64,000 nucleotides of DNA from Gossypium raimondii. Taxonomy: Eukaryota > Streptophyta > Magnoliopsida > Malvales > Malvaceae. A model generated the notes under the pieces. It ran no database searches, was not told the origin of the DNA, and worked only from the letters and a program-made list of their open reading frames with translations. Shown here in pieces: positions 24,946 to 43,767 of this stretch. A program made the position numbers and the translations under genes. The stretch covers positions 59,963,980 to 60,027,979 of the forward strand of contig NC_068575.1 in assembly GCF_025698545.1 (NCBI RefSeq). Direction: 5' to 3'. Position 1 is the first letter of the stretch, and each line of letters opens with the position of its first letter.

Positions 24946-25602
24946 CTAATTATAATGGTGACAGGTGATATTCTGACCATCAATAGGCTTATCCTCTTCT
25001 TCCTTCACCACCGCCGAAGCTAGCTCACTACTAACTAGTGACATGACGTCACTTTCCGGCGACTTATTTCCCTTCTCTTTTCCCCTTTTCCTACAAGTCG
25101 TGGCTGGTGGAGTAGCCTGTCCAGCTTCCAGTGGGAAATTCAGTATTGCTTTCTGCCCCCTCATTTTAAATGCTGCACAATCATAAGCCTTGGCAGCATC
25201 GACATCAGTATCGAAAGTACCTAGCCAAACCCGACGTCCCTTCCTGGTCGGGTCTCGGATCTCTGCAGCAAACTTGCCCCATGGCCTTCTCCGCACTCCT
25301 CTGTAATGCCTCCTCTCTTCACAAACCAACACCTTCTGCTCCACTTTCGACCCTGAAATGAACACACTCGGAGATTCCAGCTCAACAACCCCAGGTTTTA
25401 CGTCATAGCTGAAGATTTCAGGGATTCCGCAATTCGGGTCAGATACGGGAGAGTGAGGTTGATAAAGTTCGGGAACCTGGTAATTTTGTAGTTGAGAGAG
25501 GCCAAAATCAAGGCTACTTATAAAAGCATCAGCCGAAGGGAAGTCTCCAAGGAGGTGCTGATGAATGAAATCGAGTGTCGTTGATTCTTCAACGCTGGTC
25601 AT
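24946..25602 (-). CDS. AP2/ERF transcription factor, group IX (ERF5/ERF6-like)
   Basis: Nuclear DNA-binding regulator of ethylene, jasmonate and stress responses; this family binds GCC-box promoters. Intronless, 218 residues. The single AP2 domain is at about 99-157: [20 protein letters not shown], then [19 protein letters not shown] and KAILNFP. It has the Ala and Asp of the ERF (not DREB) subgroup in [10 protein letters not shown]. The N-terminus has an amphipathic acidic motif ([12 protein letters not shown]) typical of group IX activators. The basic stretch CRKRGKEKG after the domain is a likely nuclear signal. The tail ends [10 protein letters not shown]. The next gene rightward is another group IX ERF, matching the Arabidopsis arrangement in which ERF5 and ERF6 neighbour ERF2 and ERF1A. 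Exact orthology is not proven. Confidence 0.9.
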
Positions 25603-25707
25603 TTCCTTGAAAACTTTTTCAAGAATTAATAAATGGAAGCGGCACTGGGTTAGAATATAATATATTTATATACAGGAAAATTGGAAAGAAAATATTCAAA
25701 ATTCTTT

Positions 25708-28568: not shown

Positions 28569-28953
28569 GTGTTTATACATGGATATTAAATTATATGATG
28601 TTATTTTTATTGAGTGACATCGATTGATGAGAATATAAATATTAGAGTTAAATTTTTTTATATTGAACTTTTTTTTCTCGTTCAAAACATTTTTCACAAT
28701 TTTTACACTTATCATAATTGTAATTATATTTTAATTAGATGACATTAAAATTAAATATATTAATCTCTAAAATATTCCCAATTTTTAGTTACCAATTAAT
28801 TAATCTCACTTTATTTTTTTCCTTCTATAAATATCCCCCTCTCTCTTTCTAAATTAAGTCCCTTATTAGTTTCTTTCTTTTCGTATTTGGTGTTCTTTGC
28901 TTACAAATTTGGTATTGGATCGAAGCCAAATCTCAAATCGTAAATTGCATAGA

Positions 28954-29637
28954 ATGAACGAGATTAGTCTGTGTGAGTATAGCTTTTCTCATCAATATCC
29001 TCGAAGTCCAAGCTTTACTTGTCTTAACTCTTGCCTGACGGAACGATGGGGCGATTTGCCCTTGAAAGTCGATGACTCTGAGGACATGCTTATATACAAC
29101 TCCCTTCACGAAGCTCTTAATTTTGGATGGTCTCCTTCCGATTCAACGCTGCCAACTGCCATTAAAGACGAGCCTGAGGTGTTGACACCAGTAATCAAAG
29201 TGAACTCCATCGGGTCGACTCAACCCGTAGCTGCTGCAACAACTCAAATGTTATTCGGAACTGCTTTCATGGGAATAAGCAGTGAAAACGAAACCGCCTT
29301 TTTTATGGGAAAACAAGAAAAGTGCTTTAGGAATGGGAATCAAAGAGTAGCTAAGGGGAGGCATTACAGAGGAGTAAGGCAAAGGCCGTGGGGGAAATTC
29401 GCGGCGGAGATAAGAGACTCAGCTAGGAACGGGGCAAGAGTTTGGCTAGGCACGTACGAGACCGCCGAGGAAGCTGCTTTGGCTTATGACCGAGCGGCTT
29501 TTAAAATGCGTGGTTCCAGGGCTTTGCTTAATTTCCCGCACAGGTCACGGCTAAGCGTCGGGAAAATGAGCCTTCTTCGTATAATACACCTTCGCCTAAG
29601 AGACAGAAAAGTTTGGTTACTAAACAAACCGAGTTAG
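28954..29637 (+). CDS. AP2/ERF transcription factor, group IX (ERF1A/ERF2-like), with frameshifted tail
   Basis: Intronless, 227 residues as it stands. The start is ATG 28954; the frame is open further up, but only from a TTG. The N-terminus has [20 protein letters not shown] and ALNFGWSPS, the hallmark of ERF1A/ERF2-type factors. The AP2 domain is at about 137-195 ([46 protein letters not shown]) and looks complete. After NFPHR the frame changes: the protein ends in an unrelated tail ([17 protein letters not shown]...). The expected tail is still readable in another frame to a stop at 29720: [18 protein letters not shown] and VFQLGHQMGLMPLGEQLLVN. A deletion of about ten codons, not a multiple of three, explains both the missing linker and the shift. 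It may be a truncated activator or a young pseudogene. Confidence 0.85.
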
Positions 29638-31500: not shown

Positions 31501-33820
31501 ATTGTTGGTGAAATTTTTTAGATTACACCAATTAATTGAGGGTGTGAAAAGTGTTGTATTTATTTATAAAATTATTTTTTAAAAGTTTTTACTACACTTT
31601 ATAATATACTTCTCAAACTCTTAATCTATTAGTGCATCAAATATTTTCTTCCATATTTATAGGTGAATCTAGGCGGCTAGTAGCCCCCAAATATAAATTT
31701 GTTATGTAGGCTCTTTAAGGGTTTTAAAATTTTAAATTAATAAAGATAAAATTACACTTTGACCCTCTAAAATTATAAAATTTAATTTAATCCTTTAAAA
31801 TTATAAAGATATAGACTATAAAAATTAAAATTTCATTCGCCCTGCCTATATTATTTGGTATAAGGGTAAGTATTTGGTACATTGACGGTGTACATTTTTA
31901 TTCTATAAACAGTCTTAAAATTTTGACATGTGCCATTTTTAAAAATTTTATTATACCTTATCGGACATTTATTAACTTTCGACCCTAATTTCCACTAACA
32001 ATATACTAAATAATTTCCTTAATATAATATTTTTGTTAAATTAAATTTTTTCACTTTTAACAGTGCATTTTAAAAAACAATTTTAAAAAATAGAAGGAAA
32101 GACTTTTTTTTTCCACCAAACGTCAACGCTAACCAAATGGAATTATAGTTGGATATAAATATCTTTATCATATATTGAATATTTTCGTAAAGGAACTGCC
32201 TATATTAAGTTTTAAGCAAATAATAAAAAAAGGAAAATTTAACATTAATATGATGTACCAAAATCAAATACAGAAAAGACAAAAGGATTGTTTCATTGTT
32301 ATCATTAATATTTGATGGGTAACTAAAAAATATATAATCCCAGAATTCATTTGGTGGGTTAGGGAGCACTGCAATCTTTTTTATTACTGCTCTCTGCCTA
32401 ACCCGCCCAAGGGGCAGGACAAGATCCCATCAAAGTACCTAAATGCATCCGACATAAAATCTCCTTTAATTATATGTATTTTTACAAGTGAAAATTAAGC
32501 AAAATATGAAAGGAATAAACTAAGATCCACCATGGTTTCACACGTATCTCAAGCTTAAAGCCTTGCACAACTAACTTTGATTTGTCCTTTCCTAACATTT
32601 CATAATTGATCTCTCTTTGTACCCCACAAATCACAAATTTGTATAGAAAAGTTGAAGCCAATGAAAGCTGCCTTCCACAGTCTCCTTTGCATATAATTTT
32701 ACTATTGACTTTGAAACTGCTAAGAGCTCATCATACTTTAGAAGTACCTTTGGATCAGTTAGTAAAATCCTTCTCTTCCGGTTAATAAGTAATCACGGCA
32801 GATTCAAGAAAAGTTTGCAATTTTTTTTTCAAAATTGGATTTGATGTATTTTGGATTTTATCTTATACGGTTGCTATGGTTTATCTTGTACTAATTATAT
32901 TTTTGTATAATTTATTTTGTACAGTTTCGATTGAACCAATTGGTGTACACCATTCTGGTAAATTCCAATCGCACTAGCTGTGCATGAATAATATTAAAAA
33001 TATAAAACTTTTAACTGTTTACTATTAGACTAAAGACTTAATTGGGATATATTAATTAATGAAAGAATTATTACAGCGAAAAGCCGAGTTTAATTTTTTT
33101 TGGGGTCATGCTTTCACATTTAAAATATAAAAATTAAAATATACTAAAAAATTCACTTACCTTCTTCGGTTTCTTTTATTGAAAAAATTCTCTCACTCTT
33201 CAATTTCTTTTTCTTATTAATTTTGAATCTATTAAAGAGTATTTTATATACATATATTAAATATTTTTAAAAATATTGATAAATTCAAAATAATACTCCA
33301 AAATAAATGATATCAATACCATCTCTAATAATAAAAATGATGTATTTAAGATGTGATAGTAACTGCCTTGTTCTCGTCTCATTTCATTTTACTACACTCA
33401 AATATATATATATATATATATGTATGTATATTTATCATCTTAATTCAAGATTTCAAGAATTTAATACTAACATGATTGAAATTGAAGAAAGCCTTTTCTA
33501 TGGCTTCCATGAAAAAAAAATCAAAAGTGAGAAAATATGGCCGAGAAATGAAAAAACACTAACACTGCCACCAATCAAGCAATATAATTCGTACAGGCTA
33601 AATTGTAGAATTTGATTCATCTGGAATATATTCCTGTAACTATGTAATCTATGATTTGTTTTTCGGATTTTAGTTTCAATCTCCGTCATTCTTAGTTGGC
33701 AGTAGTGTTGCAGCAGCGGCAAAGTCGAAATTTCAGATCTGTCTACCGGTTGTAATGATTAGCTAATCCAGCTCCTGCATTTCATTTCCTCCGTAGGTCC
33801 TACGGCTTTAAATGTTTCCA
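31501..33820. other. Intergenic spacer
   Basis: AT-rich, no gene supported. A (TA)n microsatellite lies at about 33402-33420. The open frame at 33307-33615 lacks any motif. Confidence 0.4.
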
Positions 33821-36800
33821 TCAACAGAACCAAAACTGTTGTCTCAACCTTACGAGCTCTTTTTCAACTTTCCACATACCCTTTCTCTCATCAGGTAACT
33901 CTGAAGTGCAACAATAAATCAATCTCAGGATCGTACGTAAAAATCTTATAGTCGGTGTTGAAGTAGCGGTGAAGCCTTTCTGATCAGTTCGCTGAAAAAC
34001 GAGGTCTGCGATTTTATCTTCCGATTGTAATAAGTCGCAAATCAGGCTCCTCCAGGTCATTTCTGTTGGGTTTAATATGGTAAATGTTTCCATCAACAGG
34101 ATACCAAAACAGTATACATCAGTTTTTTCGGAAACATTTCCAGTTGATTCATACTCTGCATGGAAGATAGTAATAATAGGAATTATAAAAACTTTATCCA
34201 TACTTGAAAACATTATACAGAAATAAACCCAAGAATTTAGATCACCTGGTGCTATATAACCAGGAGTTTCTGCCATTGTAGTGGTTATTGTTGCAGCACT
34301 TCCTTTGTCTAAGACTTTGGAAAAGCTGAAGCCACTTATGCGAGCAACCTGCCACACCCCACTCCAAACCAAAAATGAAAATTGAGTACATATCAACATC
34401 ATATATTCATAAGATGAATCACATAAGCATGCAATGCAATAGACAGTTTAAGTTACCATATCCTCATCTAGCAAGACATTGGTGGGGTTTAAATTGCAGT
34501 GAATGACACGCATAGAATGAAGGTAAGACAAAGCAGATGCCACGTTTATCATTATTTCGAGCCTTTGGTGAAAGTTGAAGATATTCATGCCAGGGTGTAG
34601 ATAGTTTTGGAGAGACCCGTACGGCATGTATTCTACCACCAAGGCTTTGAAATCAATGTCAACGCAACATTTCAGGAGTTTAACAACATTCCGATGACGA
34701 ATACATGACAATGCTTGACAGTGAGCTTCAAAACCTTCTAACCCTCTTTTCTGTAGATCAAAAATCTTTATTGCAACAACGCACTTGTCTTCCAGAGTTC
34801 CTTTGTACACAAAGCTAGATTTCCCCGAGTCAAGCAGGTTTCTTTCACTAAATCCATCTGTTGCTAACATGAGCTCTCGAAACAAAATCCTAGGAGGCAA
34901 TGCCATTTGGGTTACTTCACATTCTTCTATCAATTTGGCATCTCTTAAAAAGCGGGATTTTATCCTACAGAGCTTGCACTGAACTTCTATCATAGTCTTC
35001 CTCTCAGAAAACGACTCTACAGTACAAAACCAAGCAACATTCATGATTGATTTTATGCATCTTGTTTTAGCTGCTATGTCTTCTTGATCATTTTTCAGCA
35101 AAGTGACATCAGTGATTCTGTCCACTGCATTAGGTAATGACTCAAATATCCAGCTCCTCAAATTCATTTCTCCATTAAATGTATTATCTGTAGGCTTCTT
35201 TCCGGTGAATGTTTCCATCAGTAGAATACCGAAGCTGTAGACATCTGTTTTTTCAGATACAATTCCTCTCGATCCATACTCTACAGTTTAGTACATTGCG
35301 TCAATAACAATTGGCTTTCAAAATACAAACCACAGAGAAATCACACACATGAATCAAATTTCAGATATAACATTAGTACCTGGTGCCATGTACCCAATAG
35401 TGGCCATGGTCCCTGTTTGCACTGCAGCATCTCTGCCATCTAGGAGTTTGGCAATGCTGAAATCACTTACACGAGCAACCATGTCTTCATCCAGCAGGAC
35501 ATTGCTAGGTTTCAAATCACAGTGAATGATATGTTCTGAATGAAGGTAGCTCATAGCTGATGCAACTTCTATCATTATATCAAGTCTTTGCAAGAGATTC
35601 AAAAAATAATTGTGAGTGTAAAGCCACTTATCCAGGGTTCCATTGGGCATGTATTCCAGCACCAAGGCTCTGAAATTATTATCACTGCAGCTGTTCATTA
35701 GTTTGACAAGATTAGGATGACCAACTTTAGTCAGTAATTCAGATTCAACCTGAAAACTCCTCATTCCTCTCTCTAGAGTCAAATCGAAAACCTTTATGGC
35801 AACGTTCTTCTCCTCTTTCATTGTTCCCTTGTAAACAAAACCAAAACTTCCAGTGCCAAGAAGGTTGCTTTCACTAAATCCATCTGTCGCTAGCACAATT
35901 TCTTGGTACAAAATTGTTCTGTTTGTTGTTAAGAGTGGATCCTCTTCCTTTTCCAGGCAGTGTTTTATGACCCTGTATACTGGTGATAGGAAACAAATTG
36001 ATGCAGTAACCGGCAGCAGAATCATTGTAAGAAGCAAAATAGTCTTCGGCAATCTTTTACCAGTCGATTTAGTCCTGCAATGCCGAACTTGCAATCGTGC
36101 TGCACCGCAAAGTGCATTGTTCATCAAATATGATTGGGCTCTGAAGTTAGCAAAGGATCCCGCACCGGGTATCTCCCCTTCGAGTTGATTAAAAGACACA
36201 TTAAAATATATAAGGTAATGGAGTTTTTCCAAGGATTTTGGAATAACGCCGGACAAGTTGTTACGAGAGAGATCCAAGAATTCCAAGGCCACAGCCAAAC
36301 CAAGGAATTCTGGAATGGGACCATGCAATCTATTTACTGCAAAAGAGAGGTAAACTAGATTTTTCAGTTTCTCAATACTGACTGGGATGTGGCCTGATAA
36401 CTGATTATTTGACAAATCAATTTCGACCAAAGCTTTCAGATCTCCAATTCCTGATGGGAGAGACCCCTGTAAAGAATTTGATGACAGGTTTATGGCCAGT
36501 ATATCCACAAGGCTCCACAAGCTGGACGGTATCGTGGAAGTCAATCTATTAGAGCTTATGCTGAGGTTCCTCAGAGCGGTGAGATTACTTAGGCATTCTG
36601 GTATGGATCCAGAGAGCTCATTGCCACCTAAAAACAATTCAAACATCCTTCCCAACAGACAAAGATCATAAGGAATGAATCCTTGTAATTTATTACCTTG
36701 AAGTTGCAAACTTTGCAGGTTTTCCAGATGTCCAATTGTATCTGGAATAACACCTGTCAATGCATTGTTTCCTAGCTTTAAGGAAATCAAGCTGCTTAAG

Positions 36801-39491
36801 CTGCCAATTTCAGCGGGAATGCTGCCCTTAAGTTTGCAATTAGTTAACTCAAGATATTCAAGAGAAGTGGAGAGATTTCCAATAGACATAGGGAGCATGG
36901 TATCCAGAGGATTGCCTGATAACACTATCTTTCTCAAATTCCTGTTATCTGTTAATGAATTTATAAAGCTTGATTCTGGAGTGTAGGATTCACTGCTTAA
37001 CTGATTGTGTCCTAAATCAAGTTTTTGGAGATTTTTCATACTGCCAATTGTCATAGGAATAGGGCCAGTAAATGAGTTATCAGCCAAGTCCAACAAAGTG
37101 AGCTTAGATGCATTAGCGATGGAGCTAGGAATGGTTCCCTGAAGTTTATTTCCCCGAAGTTGAAGCTCAAGAAGATTTGGAAGGAAGAGGCCAATCTCTG
37201 ATGGCATTGCACCTGCCATAAATAAAACGTACATGCCCAAGTCAGAGTCACAAGATTTGCTTTCACTGAATTCTGCACTTTCTACTAACATTGTTACTTG
37301 AGCTTTCATTAGGAAGTTAACCATTAATTAACGGGGCTATTTCTAGAAAAAAGCCTTAACTTTTACAAAGGGGGCTGAATGAAATACACAAGCACTATAA
37401 CTTTATCATAGTCAACATGATGCAACCTTCCTAAAACAGGTAATAGCTGATTCTATCTCCCAAAAAGAAGCCAGGTTTTGTTCATCCCCTACACAACAAA
37501 AGGTCACATACGAACTTACCCTGCTTGTTTCTACCTGTACTTTTACAAGATATGCGAAATGCATGAGATATTAAGCCTTGCAACTAGTAATGCAAATGAG
37601 TTTCTATCAGTGGAAGATTTCCTAAGTCATTTATGCCACATCCATGGAAGAGGATGCATACCTGATACAACATACATATGTATACCCAGAATCGGGCGTG
37701 AGTTTCAAATATGGGTATGCATCTCACAAGGTCATTTCTTCATTTTTATTTTTCAATTGTGTCCATGTATTTAGAAGGCCATATCCTCGGACAAATTCCC
37801 GAAAGTGTGTTGGACATGCTTCAAAAACTTTGAAGAGTCCATGCAACATAGCAATAAATTCCTCTAAGTTTAAGCTAAATTGCTTGAGCCCCCCACTCTG
37901 GCCATCAATTTTCCCCTTAGTCCTTTTTGGCATCAAGATATATTTGATCAACCGGTATAAGAAAAGACGTTGCAATTACTTCAACCCATTTTGTTTTGCG
38001 ACCCAGGCAAACAATCAGGTTTGTAAACCTAGCTTAGCTAAGTACTATGATATACCTTCCAAGTTGTTTTCGCTGAAGTTTATTGTCTTGAGTGATGAAC
38101 AGTTACCAATACTGCTTGGAATGCGGCCTACATTAAAACAATTACAAAGAAACATCTTGGTAAAGTAAATACTGAAAACGGAAATTATGAACTGTGTCTA
38201 TATATTGTCAAGATAAATCATCTAATGAAACACTACCATTAAACTGAAAAATGGTATAGAGAAGTACGAAGAAAAGTTCATTATTAGGTATGATTTTGAT
38301 CCATTCATTTCATGTGGTCATGACTCCAGATCAATATCATCAATTTTATAATATGAGTTAGATAATGTATCATTTTGATGACTTGTACTACAAGAAGGGT
38401 TAATCAAAAAAGAAGAACCAAATTTTAAAATATTTTTACCATCAATCTTAGAAGCTAAAGATGACAAATTCAAATGAAACTTACTTTCAAGATATAGAAT
38501 TAAACTTTATGATCAGTTAAAAAACCTGCTACTAGTAAAAATTGCAGTTAATTAGTCAGTTTTACAGCTAATAGAAAAAGTCCTAGTAGATGAATTCGTG
38601 AAGTTCAAAGCTTATTGACTTTCCGAATCAAGACAAAAAAAAAACATGTTTCAAAGATTGGTAGTTATACTAAAAATGGTCTGATTCAAATAGGCAATCA
38701 GGCATACCTTCAAAGTTGTTAGTGCTAAGATCCAAGTCCTTGAGCATGGTCAAGTTCCCAAGATTTATAGATATATTTCCTGTGAAACTGTTAGAAGACA
38801 AAGATAGTACTTTTAGCTGTCGGCAGTTGAACAGACTGCTTGGGATCTGTCCATAAAGTTGATTCCGAGAGAGATAAAGCTCCTTTAATTCTGGAAGACG
38901 GTTGGCCATGTCTGCTGGAAGATTACCAGCTAGCATATTGTGGCTAAGATCAATTATTTGCAGTGAAGACAAATTAAAAATGGTAGAAGCAATGGAACCT
39001 GAGAGCTTATTGTAGCTCAAATCGATCTTCTTCAATGAAGTTATGCTGCCTAAAGCTGATGGAGTTGTACCTACAAAATAGTTTTCCATGTTTAGAACCA
39101 TGAACCATGTTCGTAGGCAGGCTCCTTACAGTTCAAGGAATTGAGTCTACTCTTCTCAAGGTACAAAACTAACTGGTTCCGAAAAGAACCATAAAGTGTG
39201 TAATAGGTTACCAACTGGAGGGAGGGTGCCATCTAGACCCATGGACGAAAGGCTCAAGGCTACGACCCTCTGGGGTTGGCCACCACAAATGACACCAATC
39301 CAATTACAAACTGAAGTAGCTGTTGTCCAGTTGTTTGCCAAGACATTTTGCGGTTCAGGACTGATATAGGCTTTCAAGGCAAGAAGAGCAGATGACTCAT
39401 CAGAATTTAATGAATAAACATGTGCTATAAACAACATCAAGAAGTGGGCTGATACCAGCCTTGGAAAGGAATAGATTTCTATGACTGACAC
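33821..39491 (-). CDS. LRR receptor-like kinase with fused second (pseudo)kinase domain
   Basis: Best model: seven exons, 39491-39212, 39070-38708, 38127-38056, 37212-35380, 35280-34457, 34348-34246 and 34155-33821. All phases agree, giving 1269 residues. A signal peptide is followed by an LRRNT_2 cap (DESSALLALKAY, CNWIGVICGG). LRRs run to about 590; exon 3 is exactly 72 bases, one LRR. The TM segment (TILLLTMILLPVTASICF) is near 625-645. Kinase 1 (about 673-950) has GTGSFG, VAIK, non-RD HCDLKPSN, DFS in place of DFG, and APEYG. The frame then continues in the same exon into kinase 2 (about 980-1265), with a ruined glycine loop (DSGKSS), VAIK, HCNLNPTN without the catalytic Asp, and GFS for DFG. 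Subfamily XII (EFR/Xa21-like) members are pattern-recognition receptors with one kinase. The first LRR looks worn, so the N-terminal exon join is less sure. Confidence 0.8.
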
Positions 39492-40456
39492 CGGAACAGA
39501 TTGATAAACGAACTATTATATAAATAAAGAGCTCAAATATATGAAAACCTATATAAATTTTAGAGCTATTAAAAGGAAAATAAATTATGACTAAAAACCA
39601 AGGCGGCTGCGACCAGAAAAACGTCGAGTCAACATATAATACGTAATATTCTTTCATTTATGTGACCGTAAATGACTGGAAATTTCGGCACCACTTTCAC
39701 GGTAAATAACAAAAATTAAATTACCCTATATTTATATGGGAGTGGGGGAGGGAGAAGGAAATAAAATCATATTGTTTGAATAGAGATTTTAATTTAAAGA
39801 GATAATATGTAGTCTCTCTTTGAGATTGTTTTAGTTGGTTTTACTTAATTCATATGTATTGATATGATATTAATAGTTAATCTTATAATAATACGTGATT
39901 TAACATAAATTAAAAATTTTAAAATATTTTAAAAATATAAATTAATTTTAAAATTATAATTTTGGATAAGTTTATATCTTGGCTAAGTACCTTTTTAACA
40001 AATTCAGTTGCTTTTAGACAAGTTCAAGGGTAAACTATATGTTAACTCTTAAAAATTTTATGCAATTAAGAAATTAAACAATATGTGTAACAAAATAAAA
40101 ATTTAAAAGTTTAAGTTCCAATTAAATACTTTTTAACAAATTTAAGGAGTAAACTGCGTATTAACCCTAATTTAAACAATGAAATTAAGAATTCTTTATT
40201 TTCTCCAATTTTTGTTTGGGAAAACTAGAAAAATAAAATAAAACAAAATTTTAAGATAAAATATTTTTATCAATTTTATATTTTATAAATAGTTTTATGA
40301 AAATGTTAAAATTATATAAAAAAGTCATTATAATTTCGTTTGCCAAAAGAAAGGATATTATTACTAAAAATAAGAAGGCATTACTAGAAAATTCATTATA
40401 ACTAATCATTTCTTTTCATTTTCACTGTTTATTCAAAAAATAATATAATACGTATT
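39492..40456. other. Divergent intergenic region between receptor kinase and NLR genes
   Basis: AT-rich. It must hold the receptor-kinase promoter (reading left) and upstream parts of the NLR promoter (reading right). No gene seen. Confidence 0.5.
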
Positions 40457-40977
40457 GATTTGCTTTCTTTTAACTTTTCTCTATTTTCTTTTCTTTACTG
40501 CTGTATTCCATATCATCACTACATATGAACAAAATAATCAAGGCATTTCTTTTTCCACGGAATCAAATAGGGAGGATATTGCAAAATTGACTCCTGCGCA
40601 TGGACCCAAAAAGGAGAGTTCTTCAGTGTTGATTTGCTTTCTTTTAACTTTTCTCTATTTTCTTTTCTTTATGCTGTATTCCATATCATCACTACATATG
40701 AACAAAATAATCAAAGCATTTCTTTTTCGACGGAATCAAATAGGGAGGATATTGCAAAATTGACTCCTGCGCATGGACCCAAAAAGGAGACTTCTTCAGT
40801 GTTGATTTGCTTTCTTTTAACTTTTCTCTATTTTCTTTTCTTTACTGCTGTATTCCATATCATCACTACATATGAACAAAATAATCAAAGCATTTCTTTT
40901 TCCACGGAATCAAATAAGGAGGATATTGCAAAATTGACTCCTGCTTTTGGACCCAAAAAGGAGACTTCTTCGGTGTT
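40457..40977 (+). repeat. Three tandem copies of a 174-bp unit upstream of the NLR gene
   Basis: Unit starts are 40457, 40631 and 40804 (spacing 174 and 173), each beginning GATTTGCTTTCTTTTAAC. Copies differ at only a few positions: one base is missing in the middle copy, and GCGCAT changes to TTTTGG in the third. The array ends about 120 bases before the NLR ATG, so it lies in that gene's promoter or leader. The frame is open across parts of it but has no ATG at its start, so coding is unlikely. Confidence 0.9.
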
Positions 40978-41094: not shown

Positions 41095-43767
41095 ATGGCG
41101 GAAGCTGCACTTTCCTTTGTTGTAGAAAGACTACCTGACATACTGGAAGAAATTGATTTTCACACGGATGTTAGAAAACATGTGGAGCGTCTACAAGAGG
41201 AATTGGTTCGGATGAGATGTTTCTTAAAGGATGCAGAAGCAAAGCAAGATGATGACGAGAGAGTGCGCAACTGGGTGTCCGATATCAGAAATGTTGCTTA
41301 TGACGCTGAGGATCTCATCGACACGTTCCTCCTCAGAATGGAGTCCCTCAAGAAAAACAACTTCTTCAAAAGGTCTGCTTCCGTTTTCAAAGAATGGAAA
41401 CATCGCTCCAACATCGCTAATGAGCTTCTTCAGATCCAAGGAAGAATCGCTAATATATCTGCTAGTCGTGAAACCTACGGCATCAGAAACATTGGGGAAG
41501 GGATCAGTACTGCGAGGGAGAGGCTTCGGAAGCTGAGAAGATCATCTCCTCGCGGTGAAGAGAAGGATATTGTTGGCCTGGACGAAGACATAGATAAGCT
41601 TGTGAAACAACTTGTCAAGACCGATGACCAATGGCATGCGATTTCAATAGTCGGAATGGGGGGCATCGGCAAGACAACTCTGGCAAAAAAGGTTTACAAT
41701 CATGGTGATATCCAGGCTCGTTTTCCTTCTCGAGCATGGGTTTATGTTTCCCAGGAATTCAGTCGTAAAGACCTACTTGAGGCAATTATAAAGCAAGTGG
41801 GATCACCAAGAAGGAAATTGGAAAGTTTCGGAGAAGAAGAACTCGAAGGTATTCTCTTTGAACACCTAAGAAGGAAGCGATATTTGGTAGTCTTGGATGA
41901 CGTATGGAGTACCGAAGCATGGAATTCGATTGCAAAGGCTTTTCCTGACAGAAGTAATGGAAGCAGAGTGATGCTAACAACACGCAACAAGGGTATTGCT
42001 TTGAAAGCAGATGCTCAAAGTATTCCCTATCATTTGAATTTTCTTAGTGAAGAAGATGGCTGGATGTTGTTCTGCAAGAAAGCTTTCATTCATAACAACG
42101 ACTCATACGGTTCACCGCAGTTGGAGGAAACAGGGAAAGAGATTGTAGCAAAATGTGCTGGATTACCACTTGCCCTCATTGTGGTGGGAGGATTGCTTTC
42201 AACGAAAAAAAATCTGGGGGAATGGAAAAGGGTTCTTTCCAACATGCACTCACTCTTCGCACGAGATGCAGATGGAGTGTCAGCCATACTAGCTTTGAGT
42301 TATAATGATTTGCCATATTACCTCAAATCTTGCTTCCTACATCTTGGCCAATTCCCAGAGGACCGCTTGATTCCCTCCCACAAACTATTTAGGCTGTGGA
42401 TTGCAGAGGGTTTGATTCCGCAGCAAGGGGAAAGGATGGAGGACGTAGCAGAGGATTACTTGAATGAGTTAATCGAGAGAAACATGGTTCAAGTAGCCAA
42501 ATGGAGTGTCAACGACAGAGTTAAACAATGCCGTCTTCATGATCTACTACGAGATCTATCCCTCTCAAAGGCCAAAGCTGAGACCTTTCATGAGATTCAA
42601 GGGTATCAAAATATCCAGCCTTCAGCAAAATCTCGTCGTCATGCCATTTACTCAACCTTTCAGTGGCCTCAATGCAAGTATTCGAATCCCCAACTCCGGT
42701 CACTCCTATTCTTTAGAGTTGATCATAACCAAAGCCAGGTTAATTATTACATAAATGATCCTTATAAAATGGAAGTCAGTGATCTGGACTATATTGGCAA
42801 AAGCTTCAAATTGCTCAGAATCCTAGAGTTGGAGGGCATACCATGTAGTAAGGTTTCAAGTATAATTGGGGTGCTAATTCATTTGAAGTACTTAGGGTTG
42901 AAGGAGACCAACTTGCAGGAGCTTTCGCCATCCATAAGTTCTTTGCGAAATCTGCAGACACTTGATGTTGCAGCAAATCTTCATCTGAAAATTATTCCCA
43001 ATGTAATATGGAAGCTAATTAAGTTACGACATCTTTATATGTGCGGCCATAAATACGGAGGGCCACTGCGAGTCGACACACTTCTGCATCTCCAGGTTCT
43101 ATCAGAAATAAATGTAGAAAAATGGATGCAAAACAACCCTGCAAAGTTAACCAGCCTGCGAAAATTGGGAATCAGAGGAAACTTCAGCTTTAAAGCTACT
43201 GAAATATTCAATTCCATTTTGGCACTTGTACAACTTCAATCCCTGTACCTGCGTGCTGAAGATGCTGATTTTCCACCACTCACTCAACTTTCTGCTCTTC
43301 AAAATCTCATCAAGTTGCATATCAGAGGAACGGTAAGAAAGTTACCTAGCTCACATGAATTCCCACCAAATCTGTCTCAGTTGACATTAGAACATACTCA
43401 TCTCAAGCAAGATTCGGTGAGGGTAATTGAGAATCTGCCGAGATTACTGATTTTGAGACTAAAAGCACATTCGTATGATGGACAAAAAATGACAATATCA
43501 ATCAACGGCTTTACCCAACTTGAGTTCTTAGAGTTTCACTCGCTAGAATCCTTGGAAGAGTTATATCTTGAAGAAGGTGCAGTGCTAAGGCTTAGGAGTT
43601 TTCGGATCATCAATTGTGTAAACTTGAAGATGCTTCCCGAAGGAATGAAATCACTTGGTGCTCTCCGTGAGTTGGATATTGAAGAGATGCCAAAAGCATT
43701 TGTGGATAGGGTTCGAGCTGAAGATTTTTACAAAGTTCAGCATGTGCCTTCTATCTTATTTGTTTAA
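41095..43767 (+). CDS. CC-NBS-LRR disease resistance protein (RPP8/RPP13-like)
   Basis: Intracellular immune receptor, single exon, 890 residues. The Rx-type coiled-coil N-terminus (MAEAALSFVVERLPDILEE) has an EDVID-type motif AEDLIDTFLL near 70-80. The NB-ARC domain shows the P-loop GMGGIGKTTLAKKVY (from about 187), kinase-2 LVVLDDVW (about 264), RNBS-B GSRVMLTTRN, GLPLAL (about 355) and RNBS-D CFLHLGQFPEDRLIP. The MHD position reads LHD (CRLHDLLRDL, about 480), a normal substitution in this group. LRRs fill 520-880. All key motifs are present and the frame is intact, so it should be functional. It lies 1.6 kb from, and divergent to, the tandem-kinase receptor gene, and the 174-bp tandem array sits directly upstream. 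The start is chosen as the first ATG in frame, which gives the standard CNL N-terminus. Confidence 0.95.
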   Translation: MAEAALSFVVERLPDILEEIDFHTDVRKHVERLQEELVRMRCFLKDAEAKQDDDERVRNWVSDIRNVAYDAEDLIDTFLLRMESLKKNNFFKRSASVFKEWKHRSNIANELLQIQGRIANISASRETYGIRNIGEGISTARERLRKLRRSSPRGEEKDIVGLDEDIDKLVKQLVKTDDQWHAISIVGMGGIGKTTLAKKVYNHGDIQARFPSRAWVYVSQEFSRKDLLEAIIKQVGSPRRKLESFGEEELEGILFEHLRRKRYLVVLDDVWSTEAWNSIAKAFPDRSNGSRVMLTTRNKGIALKADAQSIPYHLNFLSEEDGWMLFCKKAFIHNNDSYGSPQLEETGKEIVAKCAGLPLALIVVGGLLSTKKNLGEWKRVLSNMHSLFARDADGVSAILALSYNDLPYYLKSCFLHLGQFPEDRLIPSHKLFRLWIAEGLIPQQGERMEDVAEDYLNELIERNMVQVAKWSVNDRVKQCRLHDLLRDLSLSKAKAETFHEIQGYQNIQPSAKSRRHAIYSTFQWPQCKYSNPQLRSLLFFRVDHNQSQVNYYINDPYKMEVSDLDYIGKSFKLLRILELEGIPCSKVSSIIGVLIHLKYLGLKETNLQELSPSISSLRNLQTLDVAANLHLKIIPNVIWKLIKLRHLYMCGHKYGGPLRVDTLLHLQVLSEINVEKWMQNNPAKLTSLRKLGIRGNFSFKATEIFNSILALVQLQSLYLRAEDADFPPLTQLSALQNLIKLHIRGTVRKLPSSHEFPPNLSQLTLEHTHLKQDSVRVIENLPRLLILRLKAHSYDGQKMTISINGFTQLEFLEFHSLESLEELYLEEGAVLRLRSFRIINCVNLKMLPEGMKSLGALRELDIEEMPKAFVDRVRAEDFYKVQHVPSILFV

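What the first reader, a model, noticed from the sequence alone, without database searches (positions are those of the whole stretch)
33821..39491. LRR receptor kinase fused in frame to a second, degenerate kinase domain (membrane-bound tandem kinase)
Seen: exon 35280-34457 reads without a break from the C-lobe of kinase 1 (SEKTDVYSFGILLMETFTG) into the N-lobe of kinase 2 (ELMLATDGFSERNLLDSG). All later phases fit to a single stop at 33821. Kinase 2 lacks the catalytic Asp (HCN for HCD), the DFG Asp (GFS) and an intact glycine loop, so it should be a pseudokinase. Known: tandem kinase and kinase-pseudokinase proteins such as wheat WTK1 (Yr15) and barley Rpg1 confer resistance, but those best-known cases lack an LRR ectodomain. 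Inference: a surface receptor with a built-in pseudokinase decoy or regulator.
Basis: partly seen in the sequence, partly recalled or inferred. Interest (0 to 1): 0.88.

Follow-up and report, generated by a model that had tools for sequence, protein, structure and literature searches.

The report
Plant immune-type receptor with doubled kinase
A plant cell-surface receptor gene reads in frame through a normal-looking kinase into a second, long-diverged kinase copy that has lost its catalytic residues; such doubled kinases are already known in plants, so this is one more case, and whether the gene is still working is not settled.

Summary
On the minus strand, a seven-exon model (39491-33821) keeps one frame through LRRNT cap, LRRs, transmembrane segment, kinase 1 (K1) and kinase 2 (K2). 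Pfam finds two kinase domains. K2 has lost six of nine catalytic residues checked.

New here: K1 and K2 are old duplicates (51% amino-acid identity, dS about 1.1). The estimated K2-branch dN/dS is 0.46 (0.28-0.70), so K2 was constrained for much of its history, though it changes faster than K1. K1 and K2 share one kinase intron position; K2 has one intron more. A third, broken C-lobe copy follows directly, and the stop at 33821 lies inside it. The gene's kinase end was duplicated more than once.

Against a working receptor: the only in-frame ATG (39437) leaves a very short leader, the first LRRs look damaged, and the last third of K2 is relaxed. No transcript or plant genome could be searched, so decay or a recent fusion stays open.

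Tandem kinase-pseudokinases and LRR receptor kinases with two predicted kinase domains are in print. Verdict: real, a new member of a known kind; decoy or regulator role untested.

The parts
39212..39491 (-). exon 1: leader, LRRNT cap, first LRR; only in-frame ATG before the cap at 39437-39435
   Evidence: LRRNT_2 by Pfam
39071..39211 (-). inferred intron 1 (141 bp); its 5' part still reads on from PPVG as NLLHTLWFF, so it may be damaged LRR coding sequence
38708..39070 (-). exon 2: LRRs
38056..38127 (-). exon 3: 72 bp, the length of one LRR
35380..37212 (-). exon 4: LRRs, transmembrane segment (starts about 36050), juxtamembrane, K1 up to APE
   Evidence: hydropathy windows over 1.6 only at residues 626-636
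35281..35379 (-). intron in K1 at AP|E (phase 1, 99 bp)
34457..35280 (-). fusion exon: K1 C-lobe, short linker, K2 N-lobe to DEDM
34349..34456 (-). intron present only in K2 (phase 0, 108 bp); if kept, the frame stops at 34448
   Evidence: K1 reads DEDMVAR without a break
34246..34348 (-). exon 6: K2 activation segment (VARISGFSFSK...APE)
34156..34245 (-). intron in K2 at AP|E (90 bp), same position as in K1
33821..34155 (-). exon 7: K2 C-lobe and stop
33645..33841 (-). third, broken copy of the kinase C-lobe (starts near the FG of VYSFG; lower end approximate), with a 2-base gap against K1 and K2 and a TAA in its own frame at 33761; overlaps the end of exon 7

Best explanation
One gene for an LRR receptor-like kinase of the FLS2/EFR/Xa21 kind (LRR-XII; placement from memory and motif likeness, not from a tree). 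Its intracellular part, juxtamembrane plus kinase, was duplicated in genomic DNA by unequal exchange, giving K1, K2 and a broken third C-lobe in a row (shown: homology and shared intron position; inferred: the exchange). K1 keeps the catalytic residues and is non-RD. K2 lost catalytic residues but kept fold residues and was under purifying constraint for much of its past (shown, on estimates). Most likely mode (inferred): the receptor signals through K1, and K2, held next to it at the membrane, works without catalysis as a docking or regulatory domain for K1 or its partners. A decoy for effectors that attack receptor kinases is the second choice.
For: Single open frame of 1269 codons over seven exons; two Pfam kinase domains. 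K2's homology begins in the juxtamembrane region right behind K1's last helix, leaving no room for a second ectodomain or an intergenic promoter. Intron at AP|E shared by K1 and K2. K1 and K2 are both three residues shorter before HxD than BRI1 and, counted by eye, than FLS2 and SOBIR1. They align along their length without a frameshift. dN 0.376, dS 1.12; differences by codon position 104/76/136 of 296, P 1.7e-6; K2-branch dN/dS 0.46 (0.28-0.70), 0 of 1000 bootstraps at or above 1. Unconstrained drift of 0.1 per site would give 3.4-3.7 stops on average, P(0) 0.02-0.03. Six of nine catalytic residues lost while HxD His, DFG Phe, APE Glu, alpha-F Asp and subdomain XI Arg are kept.
Against: Start and signal peptide are doubtful. 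Intron 1 looks like damaged LRR sequence. K2 changes faster than K1 (38 against 17, P 0.006) and its last 76 aligned codons have dN/dS near 0.73 (0.59/0.81). Drift up to about 0.05-0.1 per site cannot be excluded, so K2 may have been constrained as part of another gene and fused or released recently. Excess loss at catalytic sites is not significant (Fisher P 0.06). No transcript and no plant relative were available. Nothing in the calls bears directly on docking or regulation.
Confidence: 0.5

Rival explanations
1. A decaying receptor gene: the fusion is a by-product of unequal exchange, and the locus is now a pseudogene or is expressed only in part.
For: No in-frame ATG before 39437 and a very short leader; damaged first LRR stretch; third dead C-lobe copy; K2 C-lobe relaxed; drift of 0.05 per site leaves no stop in 14-16% of simulations.
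Against: One stop only, at the end, in 1269 codons; K2-branch dN/dS below 1 in 1000 of 1000 bootstraps. Those speak for past constraint, not for the present.
Confidence: 0.33
2. K2 is a built-in decoy: a copy of an effector target that traps effectors aimed at receptor kinases and triggers defence, perhaps with the CNL gene lying head to head.
For: Loss of catalytic residues with kept fold residues; faster change of K2; open CNL frame 41095-43767 on the other strand, 1657 bp from the ATG at 39437. Passages in PMC12830362: the tandem kinases Sr62 and RWT4 rely on a helper NLR. PMC6170490 proposes a decoy role for tandem kinases (passages).
Against: No effector, interaction or co-expression data; receptor and NLR genes often lie close together in plants (recalled); the tandem kinases with known NLR helpers are cereal proteins, and most described ones lack membrane-targeting motifs.
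Confidence: 0.1
3. Two separate genes, K2 starting inside or just behind K1.
For: A Met lies near the start of K2 (TQMALPP).
Against: K2 has no ectodomain, no membrane segment of its own and no intergenic space; the linker lies within one open exon.
Confidence: 0.04
4. Assembly error.
For: None seen; only one assembly at hand.
Against: K1 and K2 differ too much (65% DNA identity), and so does the third piece (70-73% over the first 102 shared columns, 52-55% over 226), to be one copy misassembled; the junction lies in one clean exon.
Confidence: 0.03

Closest known systems
Plant tandem kinase-pseudokinase proteins (WTK1/Yr15, RPG1)
   Same: Kinase and pseudokinase in one polypeptide; WTK1 kinase I is non-RD; 52 of 92 attributed to duplication (PMC6170490, passages).
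   Different: The 92 proteins of that paper are said to have no additional conserved domain; here an LRR ectodomain and a membrane segment precede the kinases.
[quoted passage not shown] three soybean and two foxtail millet genes)
   Same: LRR receptor kinase genes predicted to hold two kinase domains: 2 of 329 in Medicago, 3 of 467 in soybean, 2 in foxtail millet (total not in the passage seen) (passages only).
WTK7-TM (Pm36)
   Same: Membrane-associated tandem kinase; mutants show both kinase domains to be needed (PMC11006675, passages).
   Different: Membrane segment at the C-terminus; described as a 667-residue protein of two kinases and that segment.
LRR-XII receptor kinases (FLS2, EFR, Xa21)
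   Same: LRR, membrane segment, non-RD kinase; FLS2 is among the PDB chains matched by K1 and K2, below BRI1.
   Different: These have one kinase domain (recalled).

Membership tests
LRR receptor-like kinase | LRRNT cap and LRRs | tested here: met
   LRRNT_2, LRR_8 and LRR_1 above their cut-offs
LRR receptor-like kinase | signal peptide | tested here: inconclusive
   only in-frame ATG at 39437 leaves about 12 leader residues; hydropathy only, no signal-peptide predictor
LRR receptor-like kinase | single transmembrane segment before the kinase | tested here: met
   19-residue hydropathy windows over 1.6 only at residues 626-636 of 1269
LRR-XII subfamily | non-RD kinase | tested here: met
   HCD in K1
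LRR-XII subfamily | kinase groups with FLS2/EFR/Xa21 in a tree | not tested
   no plant proteome at hand; the PDB ranks BRI1 above FLS2 for K1, so the placement rests on motif recall
Tandem kinase-pseudokinase protein | two kinase domains in one reading frame | tested here: met
Tandem kinase-pseudokinase protein | one domain lacks catalytic residues | tested here: met
   K2 lost 6 of 9 checked
Tandem kinase-pseudokinase protein | no additional conserved domain (as stated for the 92 proteins of PMC6170490) | tested here: not met
   LRR ectodomain present (statement of the paper). Later papers allow further domains
Tandem kinase-pseudokinase protein | one transcript spans both kinases | not testable with these tools
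   no RNA data

The most novel reading that the evidence does not exclude
A surface receptor that carries its own constrained pseudokinase decoy or regulator on the inner side and works as a pair with the head-to-head CNL gene: extracellular sensing, effector trap and NLR executor in one locus.
Probability: 0.05. Interest if true: 0.85.

Novelty: new member of a known kind. Interest (0 to 1): 0.36.

Why it matters
If made as one protein, it shows in a single gene how a receptor can gain a linked pseudokinase by doubling its cytoplasmic module, and gives a testable case of what the second domain does for a membrane receptor. It also warns that such genes sit in loci that may decay by the same exchanges.

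Tried and rejected
Whole genome of the window: none held. Relatives by protein pattern: genome contigs 72 and 45 pattern matches, viral contigs 5 and 85, 0 confirmed by tblastn in all four; these collections are not plant genomes, so this is no evidence of rarity. Other copies of the gene in the window, with 33400-39700 masked: 0 by blastn at E 0.01 and 0 by tblastn at E 1 (repeated with exit status checked and the unmasked window as positive control). Openness of the linker as proof of fusion: rejected, 20-28% by chance. Enrichment of change at catalytic sites: Fisher P 0.06, not used as proof. For the whole of K1/K2, NG86, LWL85 and YN00 gave dN/dS of 0.375/1.061, 0.341/0.786 and 0.389/1.178; YN00 gave no value for the C-lobe segments; one search uses my own NG86-type script on a slightly different alignment. 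dS near or above 1 is close to saturation. Structure prediction was not run, since the spliced proteins are not contiguous translations of the window as the tool asks.

Papers: nine searches. I read passages only, of PMC7555646, PMC4776374, PMC12111010, PMC5955557, PMC6170490, PMC12830362, PMC11006675, PMC11968617 and PMC12835825. The survey of tandem kinases by Reveguk et al. 2025 is not held; from memory its abstract says that close to half of plant tandem kinases have extracellular domains, which would make this architecture common; not seen here. 'LRR-RLK' with 'double kinase domain' or 'two protein kinase domains', and 'TKPs' with 'extracellular domains' and 'pseudokinases', gave 0 papers; tandem kinase with NLR, head-to-head and pseudokinase gave three, listing seen only.

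Full report
What is there. The window is AT-rich (33.7% GC) and by its genes plant nuclear DNA; of nine further ORFs scanned, seven had Pfam matches, among them NB-ARC, AP2 (two), F-box, calreticulin, 2OG oxygenase and Tudor. The organism is not known to me. On the minus strand, 39491-33821, a seven-exon model has one stop, at its end, and GT...AG at its six introns; the sites were chosen by hand to fit homology and frame. The joined frame is 1269 codons: LRRNT cap and LRRs, one hydrophobic stretch at residues 626 onward, K1 at residues 658-968, K2 at 969-1269.

Two kinase domains, one degenerate. K1 and K2 both pass the Pfam cut-off (170.0 and 130.8 bits), and both match plant receptor kinases of the PDB, BRI1 first (60 of 524 and 60 of 246 matches shown). 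Aligned with K1 and BRI1, K2 lost two of three loop glycines, the alpha-C Glu, the HxD Asp, the HxD+2 Lys and the DFG Asp: six of nine catalytic positions. It kept one loop glycine, the VAIK Lys and the HxD+5 Asn, and the fold residues HxD His, DFG Phe, APE Glu, alpha-F Asp and subdomain XI Arg. K1 and K2 both have Ser at the DFG Gly, so that is not a sign of decay in K2 alone.

Origin. K1 and K2 share the phase-1 intron at AP|E, which speaks for copying of genomic DNA. K2's homology begins in the juxtamembrane region. Both are three residues shorter before HxD than BRI1 and, counted by eye, than FLS2 and SOBIR1. So they are likely close kin, though some other kinases (IRAK4, recalled) are short there too. 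Without plant relatives I cannot tell a duplication inside the gene from a join with a close neighbour. K2 alone has a 108-bp intron between DEDM and VAR. Directly after K2 lies a third piece of C-lobe, 33841 to about 33645: local alignment score 86 with K2 and 75 with K1, against the best of 500 shuffles at 45 and 42; 70% and 73% identity to K1 and K2 over the first 102 shared columns, falling to 52-55% over 226. It has a 2-base gap against both and, in its own frame, a TAA at 33761. The gene's stop comes from reading into this piece out of frame.

Selection. Over 296 aligned codons dN is 0.376 and dS 1.12 (three methods agree on dN 0.34-0.39 and dS 0.79-1.18). With BRI1 as outgroup K2 has 38 changes of its own and K1 17 (P 0.006), giving branch dN/dS of 0.46 for K2 (0.28-0.70) and 0.21 for K1 (0.11-0.33) if dS is split evenly. 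BRI1 is a distant outgroup and dS is near saturation, so these are estimates. The drift that K2 can have had without constraint is limited to roughly 0.05-0.1 per site, since P(0 stops) falls from 0.14-0.16 to 0.02-0.03 over that range. Constraint is thus supported for much of K2's past, but the present, and the time since the fusion, are not resolved: K2 could have spent that past in a separate gene. By segment (NG86) the N-lobe and the catalytic part have dN/dS near 0.34 and 0.26, and the last 76 aligned codons near 0.73.

Doubts on the whole gene. 39491 is GTG. The in-frame ATG at 39437 gives a leader of about 12 residues; an upstream exon could supply another start, but none was shown or sought by a gene finder. 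The first LRRs run into a 141-bp stretch that reads as damaged LRR sequence and is removed only if spliced as intron 1.

Compared with what is known. Tandem kinase-pseudokinases are an established kind (PMC6170490, passages), with a membrane-associated case (PMC11006675, passages) and cases with further domains (PMC12835825, passages). [quoted passage not shown] wheat has receptor kinases with two kinase domains, and cotton kinases with two to four, some of the RLK group (passages). The architecture is therefore not new; what is added is the detail of its making and the evidence for past constraint on the pseudokinase.

Mechanism. I put docking or regulation of K1 by K2 first, since K2 kept fold residues under constraint and lost catalytic ones; decoy second. 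Neither was tested.

Noticed in passing
41095-43767 +: Open single-exon CNL resistance-type gene (Rx_N, NB-ARC, winged helix, LRR), head to head with the receptor gene, 1657 bp from its ATG at 39437.
   Followed up: partly
40455-40977: Three copies of a 173-bp tandem repeat, 96% matches, between the two genes and just before the CNL.
   Followed up: no
34456-34349 -: Intron found in K2 but not at the same place in K1: a possible intron gain after the duplication.
   Followed up: partly
24946-25665 - and 28870-29637 +: Two AP2-domain (ERF-like) ORFs about 3 kb apart on opposite strands.
   Followed up: no
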